Positions 9,027 to 17,907 of a stretch of DNA of 64,000 nucleotides are shown here, in pieces. This DNA is from Bradyrhizobium sp. AUGA SZCCT0176 (GTDB lineage Bacteria; Pseudomonadota; Alphaproteobacteria; Rhizobiales; Xanthobacteraceae): contig NZ_JAFCMB010000019.1 of assembly GCF_018130145.1 (NCBI RefSeq), forward strand, positions 1-64,000. The letters run 5' to 3'. Under the pieces are notes generated by a model. That model worked only from the letters and a program-made list of their open reading frames with translations, was not told where the DNA came from and did no database searches. Positions within the stretch are counted from its first letter, which is position 1, and each line of letters opens with the position of its first letter. The position numbers and the translations under genes were made by a program.

Positions 9027-10211
9027 TCACCGCTTCACGGCGCCGGTCGGGCTGGCAAACCCTTCCATGGTCCGGATCCGCTTTTCCAACCACCAGCCAT
9101 ATTCGGGCGCCCAGTCCTCGAACTTGCGGTTGATGCCGAGATCATGGGCCCAGTGATGGGCGATGTTGGGGTTGTACTGCGATTGCCGGCCGACCGCGAT
9201 CAGATCGGCCTGGCCTTTTTCGAGCACCGCTTCGGCCTGCTCGGCCTCGAGGATGATGCCGACCGCCATGGTCGCGATATCGACTTCCTTGCGGACTCTT
9301 TCAGCATAAGGCACCTGGAAACCGAGGCCGCGCGGCACCTGCGCGGCCGTCGCCGAGCCGGAAATGCCGCCGGAGGAACAGTCGACCACGTCGACACCGC
9401 GCGCTTTCAATTCATGCGCCAGCGCCACCGTGTCATCCATGTTCCAGCCGTTCTGCGCGCCGTCGACCGAGGACACGCGTACGAACAGCGGCATCGTATC
9501 AGGCATTTCGCGCCGTACCGCCTCGACGATGTCGAGCGGCAGCCGCATCCGCCCGTTGCGGTCGCCGCCATACTCGTCGTTGCGGGTATTTGAAATCGGC
9601 GACAGGAACGAGGCCAGCAGATAGCCATGGGCCATATGAACCTCGATCACGTCGAAGCCCGCCTTGACCGCGTTTTTCGCGGCGTGCGCCCAGGTCTTCA
9701 CCATGGCGCGGCAGTCTTCGGTCGTGAGCTGGCGCGGCGTCAGCCATCCCGGCGCCACCGGCTCGCTGGTCGGACCGACCGGCTGCCATAATTTGGCGCC
9801 GGCCTTGATCTCTTCCGGCGTCAGCGGGCCCATGCCGTCCATCGCCTTTTGCGAGGACGATTTGCGGCCGCCATGCGCGAGCTGAAGACCGATCGCGGTG
9901 TTCTCCCGCCTCATGAATGATATCAGCGGCTTGAAACTTTCGACCTGGGCCTCGTTCCAGATGCCGAGATCGAACTCGTTGATCAGGCCGATTTCCTCGA
10001 CGCCGGTAGCTTCGACAAACACCAGACCAAAACCGCCGAGCGCGTAACGACCGAGATGCACCTGATGAAACATGCCGCAGGTCGCCCCGGGATCGGCGCG
10101 GTAATGCACCATCGGTGGCACCACCAGGCGGTTCTTCAGCGTCAGATCGCGGATTTTGAACGGCTGGAACAGCAGGGGGCGTGCGGGATCGGCGGAGGGC
10201 GCGTCGGACAT
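9027..10211 (-). CDS. NADH:flavin oxidoreductase, Old Yellow Enzyme family
   Basis: A 394-residue FMN-dependent TIM-barrel enzyme of the YqjM/xenobiotic reductase branch, expected to reduce activated C=C bonds with NAD(P)H. Visible features: N-terminal LLFQPFKIRDLTLKNRLVVPPM, substrate/FMN motif QLAHGGRKSS, the HMAHGYLLASFLSP segment, and a C-terminal phosphate-binding region VGRQSQYNPN. I start it at ATG 10211 (MSDAPSADPARP); the extension to 10337 has no family resemblance. The threonine deaminase lies upstream on the same strand, 103 bases away. Confidence 0.9.
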   Translation of the reverse strand: MSDAPSADPARPLLFQPFKIRDLTLKNRLVVPPMVHYRADPGATCGMFHQVHLGRYALGGFGLVFVEATGVEEIGLINEFDLGIWNEAQVESFKPLISFMRRENTAIGLQLAHGGRKSSSQKAMDGMGPLTPEEIKAGAKLWQPVGPTSEPVAPGWLTPRQLTTEDCRAMVKTWAHAAKNAVKAGFDVIEVHMAHGYLLASFLSPISNTRNDEYGGDRNGRMRLPLDIVEAVRREMPDTMPLFVRVSSVDGAQNGWNMDDTVALAHELKARGVDVVDCSSGGISGSATAAQVPRGLGFQVPYAERVRKEVDIATMAVGIILEAEQAEAVLEKGQADLIAVGRQSQYNPNIAHHWAHDLGINRKFEDWAPEYGWWLEKRIRTMEGFASPTGAVKR

Positions 10212-11761: not shown

Positions 11762-12538
11762 CTACGAAGCTGCGCTCCGCCTTTGCGCGCGCCACCACAC
11801 GCCGAATGCGATCACGACGGCGGCCGCCAGGCTGAACCAGGTGATGGCGTATTGCATGTGGTCGTCCTTGAGATGGACATTGAGCGGCCCCGGTTTCGGA
11901 ATGCCGCTCTCGGGCACCGGTGATTCCAGATCGATATAAAACGGCGCGACATTCTTGCCGCCCTCGCCCCAGCCGAGCGCGCGCGCCATCGCAAGATGAT
12001 CGCGGATGAACCAGAGCCGCTTGGCGATGTTTTCCGACGGCGTCAGCGTGCCGGCGGCTTCCGGAAAGCGGAGATAGCCGGTGAATTTGACCGGCTGGCC
12101 GGTGACGAGACGGCCGACCGCGCGATCCTGCTGGGCGCGATCCTGCATCGTGTTCTGCACGAAGCCGGTATTGACCGCGACGATTGCCCCATCGGCGGTT
12201 TGCGCCGGCAGGAACGCCCAGGTGCCGGGGCCGGACACGTCGTTACGGACCGAAGAGCCGGAGCTATAGACCATCACATCGGGAAGCCGCGCGTAAGCTC
12301 CGGTGAAACTGACGCGGCGGAATTCGTCTTTGGCCGGTGTCAGCGTGCCCCACTGCGCCTGTTCCGGCAGCGCCTTGGGCGCATCGGCCAGCCTTTCGTT
12401 CAGGGCGGCGATCAGCGCGTGCTTCTGGTCGCGCCGCTGCAATTGCCAGATCCCAAGGCTCAGGCAGGTCACGATCATCACGAGCGTGAAGATGGCAAAG
12501 CCGAGCGTACCACGCCGCCGCGCAACGACGCCGGTCAT
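11762..12538 (-). CDS. SURF1-family cytochrome oxidase assembly protein
   Basis: A 258-residue inner-membrane protein that helps insert heme a into the aa3 oxidase. Two membrane helices frame a periplasmic domain: FAIFTLVMIVTCLSLGIWQ near the N-terminus (followed by the SURF1-typical WQLQRRDQK) and YAITWFSLAAAVVIAFGVWW at the C-terminus. The family signatures GPGTWAFLPA and KDDHMQYAITWF are clear. Its ATG overlaps the DUF983 stop by 4 bases, so it is translationally coupled to that gene. Confidence 0.93.
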   Translation of the reverse strand: MTGVVARRRGTLGFAIFTLVMIVTCLSLGIWQLQRRDQKHALIAALNERLADAPKALPEQAQWGTLTPAKDEFRRVSFTGAYARLPDVMVYSSGSSVRNDVSGPGTWAFLPAQTADGAIVAVNTGFVQNTMQDRAQQDRAVGRLVTGQPVKFTGYLRFPEAAGTLTPSENIAKRLWFIRDHLAMARALGWGEGGKNVAPFYIDLESPVPESGIPKPGPLNVHLKDDHMQYAITWFSLAAAVVIAFGVWWRAQRRSAAS

Positions 12539-12927
12539 TTCGGCTCGCGGTCGATCAGGCGGCCGGGTGCGGCCTTGTGATGGTATTGCAGCGCGATCAG
12601 CAGCGACTTCATCGAGCGCAGCGGCAACAGCGTGGTCGCCAGAATCAGCGGCAGCCACAGCGCCGCATGCAGCCAGAACGGCGGCTGGTATTTTATCTCC
12701 ACGATCAAGGCCGATCCGACCACGATCGCACCGGCGATCATGATGATGAAAATCGCCGGCCCGTCGCCGGCATCGATGAAGGCGTAATCGAGCCCGCAGG
12801 CCTCGCAGTTCGGCCGCAAATCGATGAAGCCCGCGTAGAGCTTGCCCTTGCCGCAGCGCGGGCAACGGCAGGCGATGCCGCGCAATGCGCTCTCGGTCAG
12901 CGTGGGAAGTGTCTCGTCCATTTGCAT
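12535..12927 (-). CDS. DUF983 family membrane protein
   Basis: About 130 residues with a zinc-ribbon-like N-terminus (CRCPRCGKGKLYAG and CEACGLDY) and two membrane helices (AIFIIMIAGAIVVGSALIVEI and a second after PPFWL). DUF983 proteins commonly sit with cytochrome oxidase assembly genes; their exact job is not established. Of two close ATGs, the second (12921) has the better distance from AAGAAGGA; I give the first. ATGA overlap with SURF1. In relatives this gene follows ctaE directly; here it is separated by about 3.3 kb. Confidence 0.88.
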   Translation of the reverse strand: MQMDETLPTLTESALRGIACRCPRCGKGKLYAGFIDLRPNCEACGLDYAFIDAGDGPAIFIIMIAGAIVVGSALIVEIKYQPPFWLHAALWLPLILATTLLPLRSMKSLLIALQYHHKAAPGRLIDREPK

Positions 12928-12933
12928 CCTTCT

Positions 12934-12988
12934 TCCCCTCTCCCCTTGTGGGAGAGGGTGCACTCGCGAAGCGAGGGCGGGTGAGGGG
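12934..12988. repeat. Intergenic repeat (CTCTCCCC...GGAGAGG type)
   Basis: A hairpin of CCCCTCTCCCC and GGGAGAGGGTG, then ACTCGCGAAGCGAGGGCGGGTGA. Same family as the elements at 54199-54330 and 62790-62922. It marks the left edge of the foreign-looking insert between DUF983 and ctaE. Confidence 0.75.
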
Positions 12989-13127
12989 TCTCTATCCGCG
13001 GCGACAGACCCGTCATTCGGTGCCCTGGCCGACGCGAAGCGTCGGCGTTCCAAGAAACGGCGGCCGGAGGCGGCCTACGCCACCTTCATATGTACCGCAA
13101 GCTACTTATTGGAGAGCCATTCGCGTA

Positions 13128-13375
13128 CTACTGGGTTGCCTCCACCTCAAGGCTCCCCGAGTGAATAATGGCCGTTTTGTTGCGCTGCCGCCAGTCCCAT
13201 GGCGCGATGATCGATCCGGACCACAGGCCCGCACGGTTCTCTCTCGCAGCGATCTCGTCGGCATCGTAAGCGTGGGAATAGCGGACGAACGACAATGCCC
13301 ACCCGATCGCACCATCCGCTTGCGCACTCCTCGCCTTCGACGAAGCAACTCGCGAGCGATCTCCGCATTCCCAAG
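13128..13375 (-). pseudogene. Frameshifted thermonuclease (SNase-like) remnant
   Basis: Reading the minus strand, three frames join into the C-terminal part of a staphylococcal-nuclease-like protein: RRSLASCFVEGEECASGW (13365-13312), MVRSG (13315-13301) and WALSFVRYSHAYDADEI, continuing through AARENRAGLWSG and APWDWRQRNK to a stop at 13128. The MVRSG/WALSF junction fits loss of one base from GGTTGG; a second shift lies about 12 bases before it. No N-terminal catalytic region was found. The gene is therefore broken and truncated. Confidence 0.6.
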
Positions 13376-13515
13376 CCTGTCTGCTGGAATGCCGGAATCA
13401 GTTTATGGCGGCCGCGACACCGCAGACCCATTTTTCCCAGCGCCTTCGAGGCGACTGCCCTAAGCGGCGCACAGGGAGGTGTGCGTGGCTTTAATGGATG
13501 GAAAGTTTGGAGAAC
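13376..13515. other. Short non-coding stretch beside the nuclease remnant
   Basis: Nothing recognised. The sequence just upstream of the nuclease scrap on the minus strand looks scrambled relative to a normal thermonuclease. Confidence 0.35.
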
Positions 13516-14373
13516 TCAGTACCTTGCAACGACGGGGCCACCAAACCGGTACGCTATTCCTATCATTCCAATGTGCGTGTTGAGTTTCAAATCCGTGGCT
13601 ACCGTTACAACTGAAACACCGGGGGATACCAGCACCAGCGAATTGCTCCAGGTTCCGAAGTCCGAGTAACGATACTCAGCACGAAGCATCCAGTTTGCGA
13701 AGATTTTCGCGTCGATGCCGACGCCGGCCGTCCAGCCCGTTCGGGTGGAGCTGTTGGTCGCCGTCGTAAGAAGGGGGATTGGCGTTGGTCCGCAAAGGGG
13801 ATCAGTAAAGCTGGTTTCGCAGGTTATCGAGTTGGAGAAGTTCTGGAACGCAATACCGCCAGTCCCATAGAGCAGAACATTGGGAGCTACCAGGTATCCG
13901 AGCCGCCCCCGCACATTCGCATCCCATCGAGCTTTCACGCTCGATACATTGGCGCCGGGGCCCGGGACACCCAGAATGCAGGTGACCGTGCAGCCGGGCG
14001 CGCCCACCGTCGTGACGGTACCATCAAAATACGCGGCATCGAGGACAATGCCGGCAACCCATTGAGGCGCGAACTGGTAGTCGTATCCTGCAAAGCCGCC
14101 GTAGCGACCGTTTGAGGGGCGAAAGCCTCTAGGCGAACTACCGTCTACCGTTGGGGGAGGAATTACAAAGCCCGGCGCGACAACGCCAATCGACGTCGTG
14201 GTCCAATCGGCGTTGGCCTGCTCGCCGCCGAGCGAGGCTCCAACATAAAAGCCTGTCCAGGTCGAAACCGCTGCTTCAGGCGCGTAGCGAGGGGCTTTCA
14301 CAGCCATGTCGGCAGCGGATGCGCCCATGGCGCTGGACGCGAGAACGGATATTGCCAAAGCAAGTTTTTTCAT
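13516..14373 (-). CDS. Outer-membrane beta-barrel protein
   Basis: A 285-residue protein with a signal peptide (KKLALAISVLASSAMGASA) and the rhizobial small-porin pattern: MAVKAPRYAPEA, then WTGFYVGASLGG, GGFAGYDYQFAPQWVAGI, GRLGYLVAPNVLLYGTGG and a closing AYRFGGPVVARY with a terminal aromatic residue, as barrel proteins need for assembly. It resembles the Omp25/Omp31-type family. ATG at 14373 is preceded by GGGGC. It belongs to the insert that separates ctaE from DUF983 and has no operon partner. Confidence 0.85.
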   Translation of the reverse strand: MKKLALAISVLASSAMGASAADMAVKAPRYAPEAAVSTWTGFYVGASLGGEQANADWTTTSIGVVAPGFVIPPPTVDGSSPRGFRPSNGRYGGFAGYDYQFAPQWVAGIVLDAAYFDGTVTTVGAPGCTVTCILGVPGPGANVSSVKARWDANVRGRLGYLVAPNVLLYGTGGIAFQNFSNSITCETSFTDPLCGPTPIPLLTTATNSSTRTGWTAGVGIDAKIFANWMLRAEYRYSDFGTWSNSLVLVSPGVSVVTVATDLKLNTHIGMIGIAYRFGGPVVARY

Positions 14374-14848
14374 AAAAAGCCCCAGCGCTCGGTGAATGGC
14401 CCGAACCAAAGCTTAAACGGGTTCATCGTGCCCAGATGTATCGTTCAGGCCACAGTCGCGACATTTCGGACGAACATGCGGAACCCTGTTCCGCTCTTGC
14501 CAACCCGTCCGCCGGCCTGGGACCGCCAATCGCTGACGATCGGCATCGTGGTGTAGCCGAGCAAGAGCGACGCCTCGTCAGCGAGCGCATCAACGCCGCG
14601 CTTGCAGCCGCCAAGGCCGTGCGGCTGCACCTCTTCCGGTAGATCAAGGCCTGCGCCGACATATCCGGAGGCTACGGATGATGGCGGTTTGCTGCCCGTG
14701 GTGGAGTGGCCACAGGACCAGCATCAGAGCCTTGAGGAGCAAATTTGAAGCAGCCTGGATGAAATTTCCAAGCAGCACGGCGCGACGCAGGGGCAGCGCC
14801 TCGCAAGGATCGGCCCCCGACGGTCAAGTCGAGCGTCATCCGATCATA
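14374..14848. other. Non-coding stretch with a recombinase scrap
   Basis: No intact gene was seen. The only recognisable coding trace is the serine recombinase fragment at 14553-14630. Overlapping open frames on both strands here have no family resemblance. Confidence 0.45.
14553..14630 (+). pseudogene. Fragment of a serine site-specific recombinase
   Basis: The plus-strand frame reads ERRLVSERINAALAAAKA, preceded by VAEQ. This closely follows the helix that ends the catalytic domain of resolvase/invertase-type recombinases, where the usual pattern is AEQER-x-ISERT-x-AALAAAKARG. The catalytic serine region and the DNA-binding domain are absent on either side. It is short, so chance cannot be ruled out, but its position inside the insert fits a decayed mobile element. 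Confidence 0.5.
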
Positions 14849-15958
14849 TCAACCGGTCGCTTTGCAAAAATCCCTCGCCGTGTAAAAAAACCGCCTTGCC
14901 CCGTGATACCACCACCCCACTCTTTGGAAAAGAAATCTGGATTCTCTTTTCGAAAGGTGAAGTATCTTCTCGTTGACAAAAACCTTGTGCGGATTTCTGG
15001 GGGCGCCGTCTGTTTCAACAGGAACAATTTCGGCATCATAAATTAGGCCATGCAATTCCGCGAAGATCATGGCTTCGATGACCAATATATCAATGAAGTA
15101 TTTTTTATGTTTATCATCACCACGAAATTTCGTGCTTTGCGGATGATACTTTCTGGTTGCCATCCACGCATAGATCGCTCCTGAATCAAACAGGAAAGCG
15201 GCGGCGGCTTCTATGCCGTCTTTGTCTTTTACCGCAAGCGCGAACGCTTTCTGACGACGGACGCCATTCTCGATGAGTGCCTCTGCAATGCTCAGCGGAG
15301 CATAGCTCTGCGCGCCATTACTGGTAAGATTGCTCTGATAAAACTTACAAAAGTCAGACGCTGAGATATCCTCTATTTTAGCTTGTTCCAATGCGGTTCG
15401 GTATCTAGTTCTTCCGTCTCTTGAAATGGTTTTCAGTACTTTTTCTCTGGCTTGCGCATACGCGTCACGCTCATAATTTTGTTTGCTGGGTGAACGGACG
15501 TATTTGGGTATTTTGATGCATTCAAACCCGGCCTTGATGAACGCATCGCGAATGATGCCGGAATCATCATCCAGGATGAATTGGCAGTAACCAATCGATC
15601 CAGGTAGCTGCTTTATAATATCGGCAATCGCACCTCGTTTCTCTTCATCACTGATGTGCTTGTCGAGAAAGACGAATGAGCTGAGCCGTCTCCAGTTATC
15701 TAAACTTGTTATCCTTGGAAAAATGCCCAGTACGTTTGTTTGGCAATACGGAAAAGCGCATATCAGCTTGCCGGCTCTGTTGAATGCTTTGGCTACCCGG
15801 TGCTCCTTCCTGTACGCGATATCTACGAACCAGGGCTGAGAAAAGATCGATACGTCGTCCGGGTGTGCGCCCGCGATCCAATCGCGCTTGCTACTCTTCG
15901 GCACGAGCGTCGCCGCCAAAAGGCGGCTCCTCCAATTTTCGAAATTCGCGATGTTCAA
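14849..15958 (-). CDS. FemAB/GNAT-like acyltransferase, horizontally acquired
   Basis: A 369-residue cytosolic protein. The central part (DGRTRYRTALEQAKIEDISASDFCKFY ... ALAVKDKDGIEAAAAFLFDSGAIYAWMATRKYHP) has the layout of GNAT/FemAB-like transferases often found in polysaccharide and cell-wall loci. Substrate unknown. Its base and codon use is clearly AT-richer than every neighbour (many AAA, TTT, ATA), pointing to recent transfer. No neighbour explains its role. The family call is from general pattern only. Confidence 0.55.
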   Translation of the reverse strand: MNIANFENWRSRLLAATLVPKSSKRDWIAGAHPDDVSIFSQPWFVDIAYRKEHRVAKAFNRAGKLICAFPYCQTNVLGIFPRITSLDNWRRLSSFVFLDKHISDEEKRGAIADIIKQLPGSIGYCQFILDDDSGIIRDAFIKAGFECIKIPKYVRSPSKQNYERDAYAQAREKVLKTISRDGRTRYRTALEQAKIEDISASDFCKFYQSNLTSNGAQSYAPLSIAEALIENGVRRQKAFALAVKDKDGIEAAAAFLFDSGAIYAWMATRKYHPQSTKFRGDDKHKKYFIDILVIEAMIFAELHGLIYDAEIVPVETDGAPRNPHKVFVNEKILHLSKRESRFLFQRVGWWYHGARRFFYTARDFCKATG

Positions 15959-16274
15959 TATCTTCCAGCGGTAATCGTTCAGTCTATCGGCACGCGCGGG
16001 AGCTCCCCCGACCGCCCGGTAGCCTGTTCAGAGTATTCGGGGGACGACGCAAGAGTGAGTGCGCAGAAGGATTACCCAAACCGGCAAGCCGCTCCGGCTA
16101 GCGCTGAACCGGTCTCCATGCTGTCACGATCCGAGACTTCACCCGTCGGTGACCGTGTCAGCATGAGGATGGTTAACGCCCGGCGATACACGCATCTCGA
16201 TCGTTAGCCCAAAAGGCAAACGAAAGAAAAAGGGCGGCCCTGCGGCCGCCCTCTTGTAACAAAATGATGCCAGA
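15959..16274. other. Intergenic region at the right edge of the insert
   Basis: No gene seen. It contains the ctaE terminator near its right end and probably the junction between native and foreign DNA; base composition rises again after about 15960. Confidence 0.4.
16225..16256 (-). terminator. Rho-independent terminator after ctaE
   Basis: Stem AGGGCGGCC at 16231-16239 pairs with GGCCGCCCT at 16244-16252; on the minus strand it is followed by a TTTTTC run. It ends the cta transcript before the insert, so DUF983 and SURF1 cannot be reached by read-through from ctaE without antitermination. Confidence 0.8.
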
Positions 16275-17171
16275 TCAATGCGCGGCGTGCCCGACAGCGT
16301 CAGCGCCGCGGAACCAGACATAGATGCAGATGAACAGGAACAGCCACACCACGTCGACGAAGTGCCAGTACCAGGCGGCGAATTCGAAGCCGAGATGCTG
16401 GGTCGGCGTGAAGTGTCCGGCATAGGCGCGGAACAGGCAGACCAGCAGGAACACGGTGCCGACCAGCACGTGGAAACCGTGGAAGCCGGTCGCCATGAAG
16501 AAGGTCGCGCCATACATGTTGCCGGAGAAGTGGAATGTGGCGTGGGCGTATTCATAGGCCTGCACGCAGGTGAACAACGCGCCGAGCACGACGGTGAGGA
16601 TCAGGCCGTATTTCAGACCCTTGCGATCGCCTTCCAGCAGCGCGTGGTGCGCCCAGGTCACCGTGGTGCCCGAGGTCAGCAGCAGCAGCGTATTGAGGAG
16701 CGGCAGATGCCAGGGGTCGAAGGTCTCGATGCCCTTCGGCGGCCAGGTGCCCGGCACGCTGCAGGCGCCCGCGGCCGTGCCGGCGCCACAGCCGAACACC
16801 GCGTCGCGGGTGGCGTGAATGGCATCGGCCGGGAACAGCGCGGAATTGAAGAAGGCCCAGAACCAGGCGACGAAGAACATCACCTCGGAGGCGATGAACA
16901 GGATCATGCCGTAACGGTGGCTGATCTGCACCACGCGGGTGTGGTCGCCCTTGAACTGGGCTTCGCGGATCACGTCGCCCCACCAGCTCGCCATGGTGTA
17001 GAGCACGCCGATGGTGCCGGCGCCGAACACGATCGGCGCCGCCGCATACATATGGTGCATCCAGCCGATCGCACCGACGGCCATGATGAAGGCCGAGATC
17101 GAGCCGACGACCGGCCACGGGCTCGGATCGACGAGGTGGTAGTCGTGGTGCTTCGCGTGCGCCGTAGCCAT
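16275..17171 (-). CDS. ctaE: Cytochrome c oxidase subunit III
   Basis: A 298-residue seven-helix subunit of the aa3 terminal oxidase. Typical stretches: HHDYHLVDPSPWPVVGSI, FFVAWFWAFFNSAL, GTTVTWAHHALLEGDR, TGFHGFHVLVGTVFL and a C-terminal WYWHFVDVVWLFLF. It stabilises subunit I and its proton uptake. Start at ATG 17171 (MATAHAKHH). Last gene of the ctaC-D-B-coxF-G-E run here; a terminator follows. Confidence 0.97.
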   Translation of the reverse strand: MATAHAKHHDYHLVDPSPWPVVGSISAFIMAVGAIGWMHHMYAAAPIVFGAGTIGVLYTMASWWGDVIREAQFKGDHTRVVQISHRYGMILFIASEVMFFVAWFWAFFNSALFPADAIHATRDAVFGCGAGTAAGACSVPGTWPPKGIETFDPWHLPLLNTLLLLTSGTTVTWAHHALLEGDRKGLKYGLILTVVLGALFTCVQAYEYAHATFHFSGNMYGATFFMATGFHGFHVLVGTVFLLVCLFRAYAGHFTPTQHLGFEFAAWYWHFVDVVWLFLFICIYVWFRGADAVGHAAH

Positions 17172-17265
17172 TGCGGTCTCTCCGTTAGCGGTGCCGGATC
17201 CTTCGGCACATCTTCGTCTCAAAAATTCAAAGTCCGGGAATTTCGAAAGGCCGAAATTCCCGGAG

Positions 17266-17907
17266 TTACAGGCTTCCCTTGCGCTTGTCCGGCTCGCCCG
17301 AAGCCACCGGCTTCGGCGCCGGATCGCGCACGGGATAGAAGGTGTAGGACAGCGTGATGGTGTTCAGCCCGTCATTCTCGCTGTCGGCGATCAGCGCCGG
17401 ATCGACGTAGAACACGACCGGCATCTCGCGCTTCTCGCCCGGCGCCATGGTCTGTTCGGTGAAGCAGAAGCAGTTGATCTTCTGGAAATACGCGCCGACC
17501 GTCAGCGGGGTTACATTGTAAGCGGCCTGGCCGACCGTGGGCCGCGCCGCCTGGTTGGTCACATGATAAAATACGGTGACGACCTCGCCGATCCTGACCT
17601 CGATCTCGTTCTGCTCCGGCTCGAACTTCCAGGGCAGGCCGGCGCCGACATTGGCATCGAACCGCACCGAGATTTTGCGAGCCAGCGGGCCTTGCGACGG
17701 CGCCGAGGTAGCGACCTGGGTGGTGCCGTTGAAGCCGGTGGCGCGGCAGAACCAGTTATAGAAGGGAACGGCGGCATAGGATGCGCCGACCATGAACACC
17801 ACGACGAAACCGCAGATCGAGGCCACCATCGCATCGCGCGTCAGGCCGCGGCGCGAAGCCTTGCGGCTTGCCTCCGTTTCCCCTCGCGCGATCGGTTGGT
17901 TTGCCAT
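17266..17907 (-). CDS. ctaG: Cytochrome c oxidase assembly protein Cox11/CtaG
   Basis: About 213 residues. One N-terminal membrane helix ([23 protein letters not shown]) anchors a periplasmic copper chaperone domain that delivers copper to CuB of subunit I. The copper-binding pair is in [10 protein letters not shown], the family hallmark. A GTG at 17916 with AGGTAGG upstream would add three residues. It follows coxF with 26 bases between and precedes ctaE. Confidence 0.96.

What the first reader, a model, noticed from the sequence alone, without database searches (positions are those of the whole stretch)
12928..16256. Foreign-looking insert splits the cta oxidase locus
In related Rhizobiales, DUF983 and SURF1 follow ctaE directly. 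Here about 3.3 kb separate them, holding a broken thermonuclease, a porin-like gene, a serine recombinase scrap and an AT-rich FemAB/GNAT-like gene. A terminator after ctaE now cuts DUF983-SURF1 from the cta transcript. A composite repeat sits at the left edge.
Basis: partly seen in the sequence, partly recalled or inferred. Interest (0 to 1): 0.62.

Follow-up and report, generated by a model that had tools for sequence, protein, structure and literature searches.

The report
Island remnant inside cta oxidase locus
Three related soil bacteria carry the worn-down remains of a mobile DNA island between two genes of a respiratory-enzyme cluster, and the scar points to a family of integrases in this genus that insert islands into short palindromic repeats scattered over the chromosome.

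Summary
The insert is real. In this Bradyrhizobium about 3.35 kb separate ctaE from DUF983-SURF1. Of 40 congeneric loci read, 38 have about 67-314 bp there; only the two nearest species share the insert, so it entered once in their common ancestor.

The 2.67 kb core encodes a FemX/GNAT-like protein and an outer-membrane barrel, both under purifying selection. The pair occurs in the same 7 of 265 congeneric genomes, at five sites.

In the two sister species the DUF983 edge is a REP hairpin, then the leader and first ~14 codons of a tyrosine-integrase gene. This matches one end of islands elsewhere in the genus: in 21 of 30 loci of that integrase family the same hairpin lies 137-172 bp before the integrase; in the other 9 a second motif does. 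Three islands (17-66 kb) are bounded by 18-23 bp hairpin repeats, one with the empty arrangement in relatives.

So the insert is most likely the stump of a REP-targeted island. In the window itself the integrase stump is gone, replaced by ~350 bp with a thermonuclease scrap.

The parts
16275..17165 (-). ctaE, cytochrome c oxidase subunit III (start codon chosen by me at 17165)
   Evidence: PF00510 E 2.4e-95 on the longer ORF 16275-17222
16228..16255 (-). ctaE terminator, ancestral to the genus
   Evidence: 12-pair stem with T-rich tail; counterpart in 36 of 40 loci by pattern, other 4 by eye
16102..16222 (.). right flank of the unit, found only in the three insert-bearing species; origin unknown
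13436..16101 (-). unit of two genes with edges shared at the cta, uvrB-side (G237) and glmU-side (G054) sites
   Evidence: alignments stop at window 13435/13436 and 16097/16100 in L091 and L092
14849..15955 (-). FemX/GNAT-like protein gene
   Evidence: close homologues in 7 of 265 congeneric genomes; dN/dS 0.105 to G085; FemX top fold hits from a low-confidence model
14510..14650 (+). serine-recombinase (resolvase) gene scrap inside the unit, limits approximate
13516..14376 (-). outer-membrane beta-barrel protein gene
   Evidence: PF13505 E 5.5e-17; same 7 of 265 genomes at E<=1e-60; dN/dS 0.14 to G085
13088..13435 (.). window-only segment with a thermonuclease-gene scrap at 13177-13341 (- strand); replaces the integrase stump seen in G085 and G012
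12935..13087 (.). REP-type palindromic element, broken inside its terminal hairpin (CACCTTC then ATATG)
12538..12921 (-). DUF983 gene (stop codon at 12535-12537)
   Evidence: PF06170 E 5.4e-33
11762..12541 (-). SURF1-like gene (label recalled and taken from the finding; conserved position)
   Evidence: conserved next to DUF983 in 40 of 40 loci

Best explanation
The insert is the remnant of a genomic island that a tyrosine integrase placed into the terminal hairpin of a REP element in the ctaE-DUF983 gap, in the common ancestor of the window's species and its two nearest relatives. Shown: single clade-specific insertion; a REP hairpin, integrase leader and about 14 integrase codons at the DUF983 edge in both sister species; the same anatomy at one end of integrase-bearing islands elsewhere in the genus. 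Inferred: that the OMP-FemX pair was cargo of that island, that most of the island and integrase were then deleted, and that the window lineage later lost the stump to a ~350 bp replacement. The surviving pair is kept by selection; I infer that it modifies the envelope (FemX/GNAT-type transferase plus outer-membrane barrel). It probably does not change cta regulation, since the terminator is ancestral.
For: Insert at cta in 3 species only: 2 of the 40 fetched loci plus the window; 3 of 265 genomes for the GNAT-like gene at cta. Identity to the sisters inside the insert (90-96% in 300-bp steps) is like that of the flanks. The left segment of G085/G012 matches integrase leaders of G078, G071, G138 (65-68% for the G085 segment; with the full leader up to 83%, E 2e-52 in a small database, for G012 against G078), up to integrase codon 14. 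Integrase identity: PHROG integrase E 3e-21, XerC/XerA-like in PDB sequences, R238, K266, R330, H351, Y362 invariant in 17 of 17 (catalytic roles recalled). 21 of 30 integrase loci have the REP hairpin 137-172 bp before the gene, 9 of 30 another motif at 131-149 bp, split by one change on the tree; background 19 hairpin hits in 571 kb, both strands. One island with empty counterpart in relatives, two more by end repeats. The window's own REP is broken inside that hairpin. dN/dS 0.14 and 0.105.
Against: The window itself has no integrase leader; the case rests on the two sister species. The ctaE-side edge has no recognisable hairpin copy. At the other four sites of the pair no REP hairpin was found within 5 mismatches, except one 5-mismatch hit about 900 bp from the G017 copy, and no integrase leader, so this mechanism does not explain the pair's wider spread. 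tblastn of integrases finds only weak N-terminal matches to L032 (best E 0.010) and none to the window insert. PF00589 itself is below its cut-off. Hairpin patterns were written after seeing the sequences.
Confidence: 0.82

Rival explanations
1. The OMP-FemX unit is a small mobile unit of its own, with fixed ends, and jumped into an already decaying integrase island (into integrase codon ~14) at cta.
For: The same edges at three sites with different neighbours; in G085 and G012 the integrase match stops where the unit begins.
Against: No clear terminal inverted repeat or target duplication seen by eye at the ends, and flank comparison at the cta site gave only short chance-level matches; no intact transposase in the unit, only a resolvase scrap; the rest of the integrase gene is not found beyond the unit.
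Confidence: 0.3
2. Independent insertions or homologous-recombination transfer of the cta region between the three species after they split.
For: ctaE-ctaG of the window and G012 are nearly identical (98-99% over 16500-17700) while the insert is 92-96%, so some recombination of the cluster is likely.
Against: The three share the right flank 16102-16222 and G085/G012 the left stump; insert divergence resembles the neighbouring genes.
Confidence: 0.08
3. The insert changes cta expression: it uncouples DUF983-SURF1 from the cta transcript.
For: About 3.3 kb and two co-oriented genes now separate the operon halves; some promoter-like sites, at about chance level (3 found, 1.8 expected).
Against: The terminator stands between ctaE and DUF983 in the relatives too.
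Confidence: 0.12

Closest known systems
Tyrosine-integrase genomic islands (for example the dusA-targeting family, PMC4482086, seen as listing and abstract start only)
   Same: Integrase gene at one end, direct repeats of the target at both ends.
   Different: The target is the hairpin of a dispersed, multi-copy REP element instead of one tRNA or protein gene, so many chromosomal places can serve.
Insertion sequences that target REP elements (Tobes and Pareja 2006, PMC1525189, passages read)
   Same: A REP palindrome is the landing site.
   Different: Those are IS elements (passages name IS1397, IS621, ISKpn1, ISPpu9/10); here large islands with a tyrosine integrase. 'Genomic island' and 'tyrosine' do not occur in that paper.
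Br-REP1 and Br-REP2 of B. japonicum USDA 110 (PMC5082802, passages read)
   Same: Dispersed palindromic elements of Bradyrhizobium intergenic regions.
   Different: The printed consensus sequences differ from the hairpin seen here; 'integrase' does not occur in that paper.
FemX-like aminoacyl transferases with GNAT fold (PDB 1ne9 and others)
   Same: The ten best Foldseek hits (E 1.5e-6 to 2.5e-5) are FemX entries and the Sbb17/Sba18 peptide synthases.
   Different: Model confidence is low (pLDDT 54.5), identity 7-16%, TM about 0.3.

Membership tests
Tyrosine-integrase genomic island (the cta insert) | Integrase gene at one end | tested here: inconclusive
   Leader plus about 14 codons in G085 and G012 only; none in the window
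Tyrosine-integrase genomic island (the cta insert) | Direct repeats of the target at both ends | tested here: not met
   Hairpin at the DUF983 edge in G085/G012, no recognisable copy at the ctaE edge. Called a remnant, not a member
Tyrosine-integrase genomic island (G138, G053, G078 islands) | Integrase at one end and target repeats at both ends | tested here: met
   Repeats of 20, 23 and 18 bp. For G138 relatives have the two flanking genes adjacent in 13 of 13 read, 5 of them with the hairpin. For G053 and G078 the far end is the next lone hairpin; no empty site was checked
Tyrosine recombinase | Conserved R-K-(H/Y)-R-(H/W)-Y residues | tested here: met
   R238, K266, Y327, R330, H351, Y362 invariant in 17 of 17 aligned; assignment of roles recalled. 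PHROG integrase E 3e-21
Transposon with terminal inverted repeats (the OMP-FemX unit) | Terminal inverted repeats, target duplication, transposase | tested here: not met
   None recognised by eye or in flank comparisons; only a resolvase scrap inside
FemAB/FemX family (GNAT-like protein) | Match to a family profile | tested here: not met
   No Pfam match at E<=1 and only irrelevant NCBIfam/PHROG matches. Four distant relatives (23-26% identical) match PF13480 above cut-off
FemAB/FemX family (GNAT-like protein) | Double GNAT fold | tested here: inconclusive
   FemX entries lead the fold search, but the model is poor
FemAB/FemX family (GNAT-like protein) | Aminoacyl- or acyl-transferase activity | not testable with these tools
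   needs biochemistry

The most novel reading that the evidence does not exclude
Bradyrhizobium holds a family of tyrosine integrases that use the terminal hairpin of dispersed REP elements as a multi-copy attB (CTTCTCCC-CTTGT-GGGAGAAG looks like an integrase core site with its inverted arms). REP elements would thus be landing pads that steer 17-66 kb islands into gaps between genes, and a sister clade has switched to a second motif. Two-gene stumps like the one at cta are what such islands leave behind.
Probability: 0.75. Interest if true: 0.62.

Novelty: new variant of a known kind. Interest (0 to 1): 0.5.

Why it matters
An odd 3.3-kb insert in a respiratory cluster turns out to be datable and mechanistically readable: it marks one entry by an integrase into a REP hairpin, followed by decay around a selected two-gene core. 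If the REP-as-attB reading holds, it gives dispersed REP elements a concrete role in island traffic by tyrosine integrases, predicts where islands can land, and offers an integrase with many natural sites per genome. The ten paper searches made here showed no listed paper that reports this; most subscription journals are not in that library.

Tried and rejected
Rejected: the terminator as a product of the insert (ancestral). Rejected: the insert as plain junk; both genes are under purifying selection between window and G085 (46 changes in the barrel gene, 14 nonsynonymous; 79 in the GNAT-like gene, 24.5 nonsynonymous, where the test assumes 75% nonsynonymous under neutrality), although G012 has lost both genes by an inversion-deletion. 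Rejected as the source: phages and plasmids; no tblastn match for the GNAT-like protein in either collection.

No REP hairpin or integrase leader at the other four unit sites. PDB sequence search with the GNAT alignment gave nothing at E<=0.1. The glmU-side site of G054 and the uvrB-side site of G237 could not be resolved to an exact empty site; G237 has about 310-bp direct repeats (71%) on both sides of the unit. Outside the genus: a genome-contig scan found 4 loci, three of them Bradyrhizobium and one Portibacter at 22% identity; a family-wide search matched 3 of 296, the third only at E 9e-4.
Full report
Observation. ORFs and sequence place ctaE at 16275-17165 (-) and DUF983 at 12538-12921 (-), with about 3.35 kb between. 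I fetched 40 congeneric cta loci out of 117 genomes with a DUF983 match. All 40 keep ctaG-ctaE-DUF983-SURF1. The gap is 67-314 bp in 38 of 40, measured between tblastn alignment ends, and 1,845 and 2,930 bp in the two nearest species, G012 and G085. The insert is AT-richer than its surroundings.

Terminator. The hairpin with T-rich tail after ctaE is found in 36 of 40 gaps by a strict pattern, and the other four (L036, L044, L058, L067) show it by eye with a longer loop or one mismatch. It is ancestral, so the insert did not create a new transcript break.

One entry, in one clade. DNA of the insert searched in 265 congeneric genomes gave long matches in 7 of 265: the window's genome, G085 and G012 at cta, and G054, G237, G017 and G254 elsewhere. 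A further 28 of 265 had only short weak matches. Identity to the sisters inside the insert (90-96% in 300-bp steps) is like that of the flanks. In G012 a 483-bp piece is inverted and about 1.2 kb (13990-15195) is missing, so both genes are broken there. In G085 the GNAT-like frame has a TGA at residue 9, before the conserved part.

The two-gene unit. The barrel protein (E<=1e-60) and the GNAT-like protein (7 strong matches, plus 7 weak ones at E 1e-7 to 7e-4) occur in exactly the same 7 of 265 genomes. Alignments to L091 (G237, beside uvrB) and L092 (G054, beside a glmU-like gene) stop at the same places: window 13435/13436 on the left and 16097/16100 on the right. The G017 and G254 copies align over less (13480-15875 and 13516-15852). 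The flanks of the five sites share nothing beyond short matches; the best is 71 bp at 82% between G017 and G254, upstream of the GNAT-like gene. dN/dS between window and G085 is 0.14 (barrel) and 0.105 (GNAT-like); over all pairs it is 0.10-0.39. The window GNAT-like protein has no Pfam match, but four distant relatives match PF13480; the neighbours of one of them (L095) include WecG-type and epimerase genes for polysaccharides. A poor AlphaFold model (pLDDT 54.5) puts FemX and the related Sbb17/Sba18 entries in the first ten Foldseek places. The inferred role is envelope modification.

The left edge. The ~150 bp between DUF983 and the unit in G085 and G012 matched three other genomes, G078, G071 and G138, at 65-68%. 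There it is the leader of an integrase gene that directly follows a REP element. The alignment runs from the REP hairpin to integrase codon 14, where the unit begins; with full leaders the best match is 83%. In the window this stump is absent: the REP (12935-13087) breaks off inside its terminal hairpin and ~350 bp with a thermonuclease scrap follow. A REP-type hairpin by a simple pattern is present in 16 of 38 insert-free gaps, the full terminal hairpin in 6 of 38.

Integrases and REP hairpins. Relatives of the G138 integrase at E<=1e-60 occur in 45 of 265 genomes; 30 loci (30 of those 45 genomes, the best) were fetched. With a fixed core pattern at up to 2 mismatches, 19 of 30 have the hairpin 137-172 bp upstream of the integrase start, against 19 hits at up to 1 mismatch in 571 kb of other congeneric DNA on both strands. 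With corrected starts and wider patterns it is 21 of 30, and the other 9 of 30 have a second motif (TGCGC..GGGAAAATAA) at 131-149 bp. The two classes are separated by a single change on the tree (100/100 support), and the host sides share no flank except one 53-bp match; 3 of 30 flanks were too short to compare. These wider patterns were written after reading the sequences. In G138 an island of about 66 kb lies between two genes that are adjacent in 13 of 13 relatives read, 5 of which carry the hairpin there; a 20-bp hairpin repeat bounds it. In G053 and G078 the next lone hairpins give islands of about 17.0 and 19.5 kb with 23- and 18-bp repeats; their empty sites were not examined. The protein is a tyrosine recombinase by PHROG, PDB-sequence and residue evidence, though PF00589 is below its cut-off.

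Reading. The simplest account is one integrase-mediated entry at the REP hairpin of the ctaE-DUF983 gap, loss of nearly all of the island, and retention of a selected OMP-FemX pair. Weak points: no hairpin at the ctaE edge, nothing of the integrase in the window itself, and no REP or leader at the other four sites of the pair, which leaves the pair's own mobility unexplained.

Literature. Passages of PMC5082802, PMC3733652, PMC7656271, PMC1525189 and PMC11476347 were read; other papers were seen as listings with the start of their abstracts. REPs as targets of IS elements are known (PMC1525189). Ten searches listed no report of tyrosine-integrase islands with a REP attB; absence from that library is not proof of novelty.

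Noticed in passing
L184, L185, L186, L188, L193, L195-L198, upstream of the integrase: Nine integrases of a sister clade follow a different motif (TGCGC..GGGAAAATAA), in some loci the end of a longer palindromic element; possibly a second repeat-family target.
   Followed up: partly
L091:6225-6545 and 9246-9553: About 310-bp direct repeats (71% identical) lie on both sides of the OMP-FemX unit beside uvrB in G237, while G011 matches with one region.
   Followed up: partly
window 16500-17700: ctaE-ctaG region is 98-99% identical to G012 while the neighbouring insert and DUF983-SURF1 side are 92-96%, which suggests recombination in the cta cluster.
   Followed up: no
L032:3404-5045 (G012): Inversion plus deletion inside the cta insert breaks both genes of the pair in this species.
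   Followed up: partly
L094:2445-3608: Another Acetyltransf_6 gene (PF13480 E 7.6e-23) lies about 1.7 kb from the unit in G254.
   Followed up: no
L093:6879-6947 and L094:7795-7865: A 71-bp stretch upstream of the GNAT-like gene is 82% identical in G017 and G254, perhaps its promoter region.
   Followed up: no
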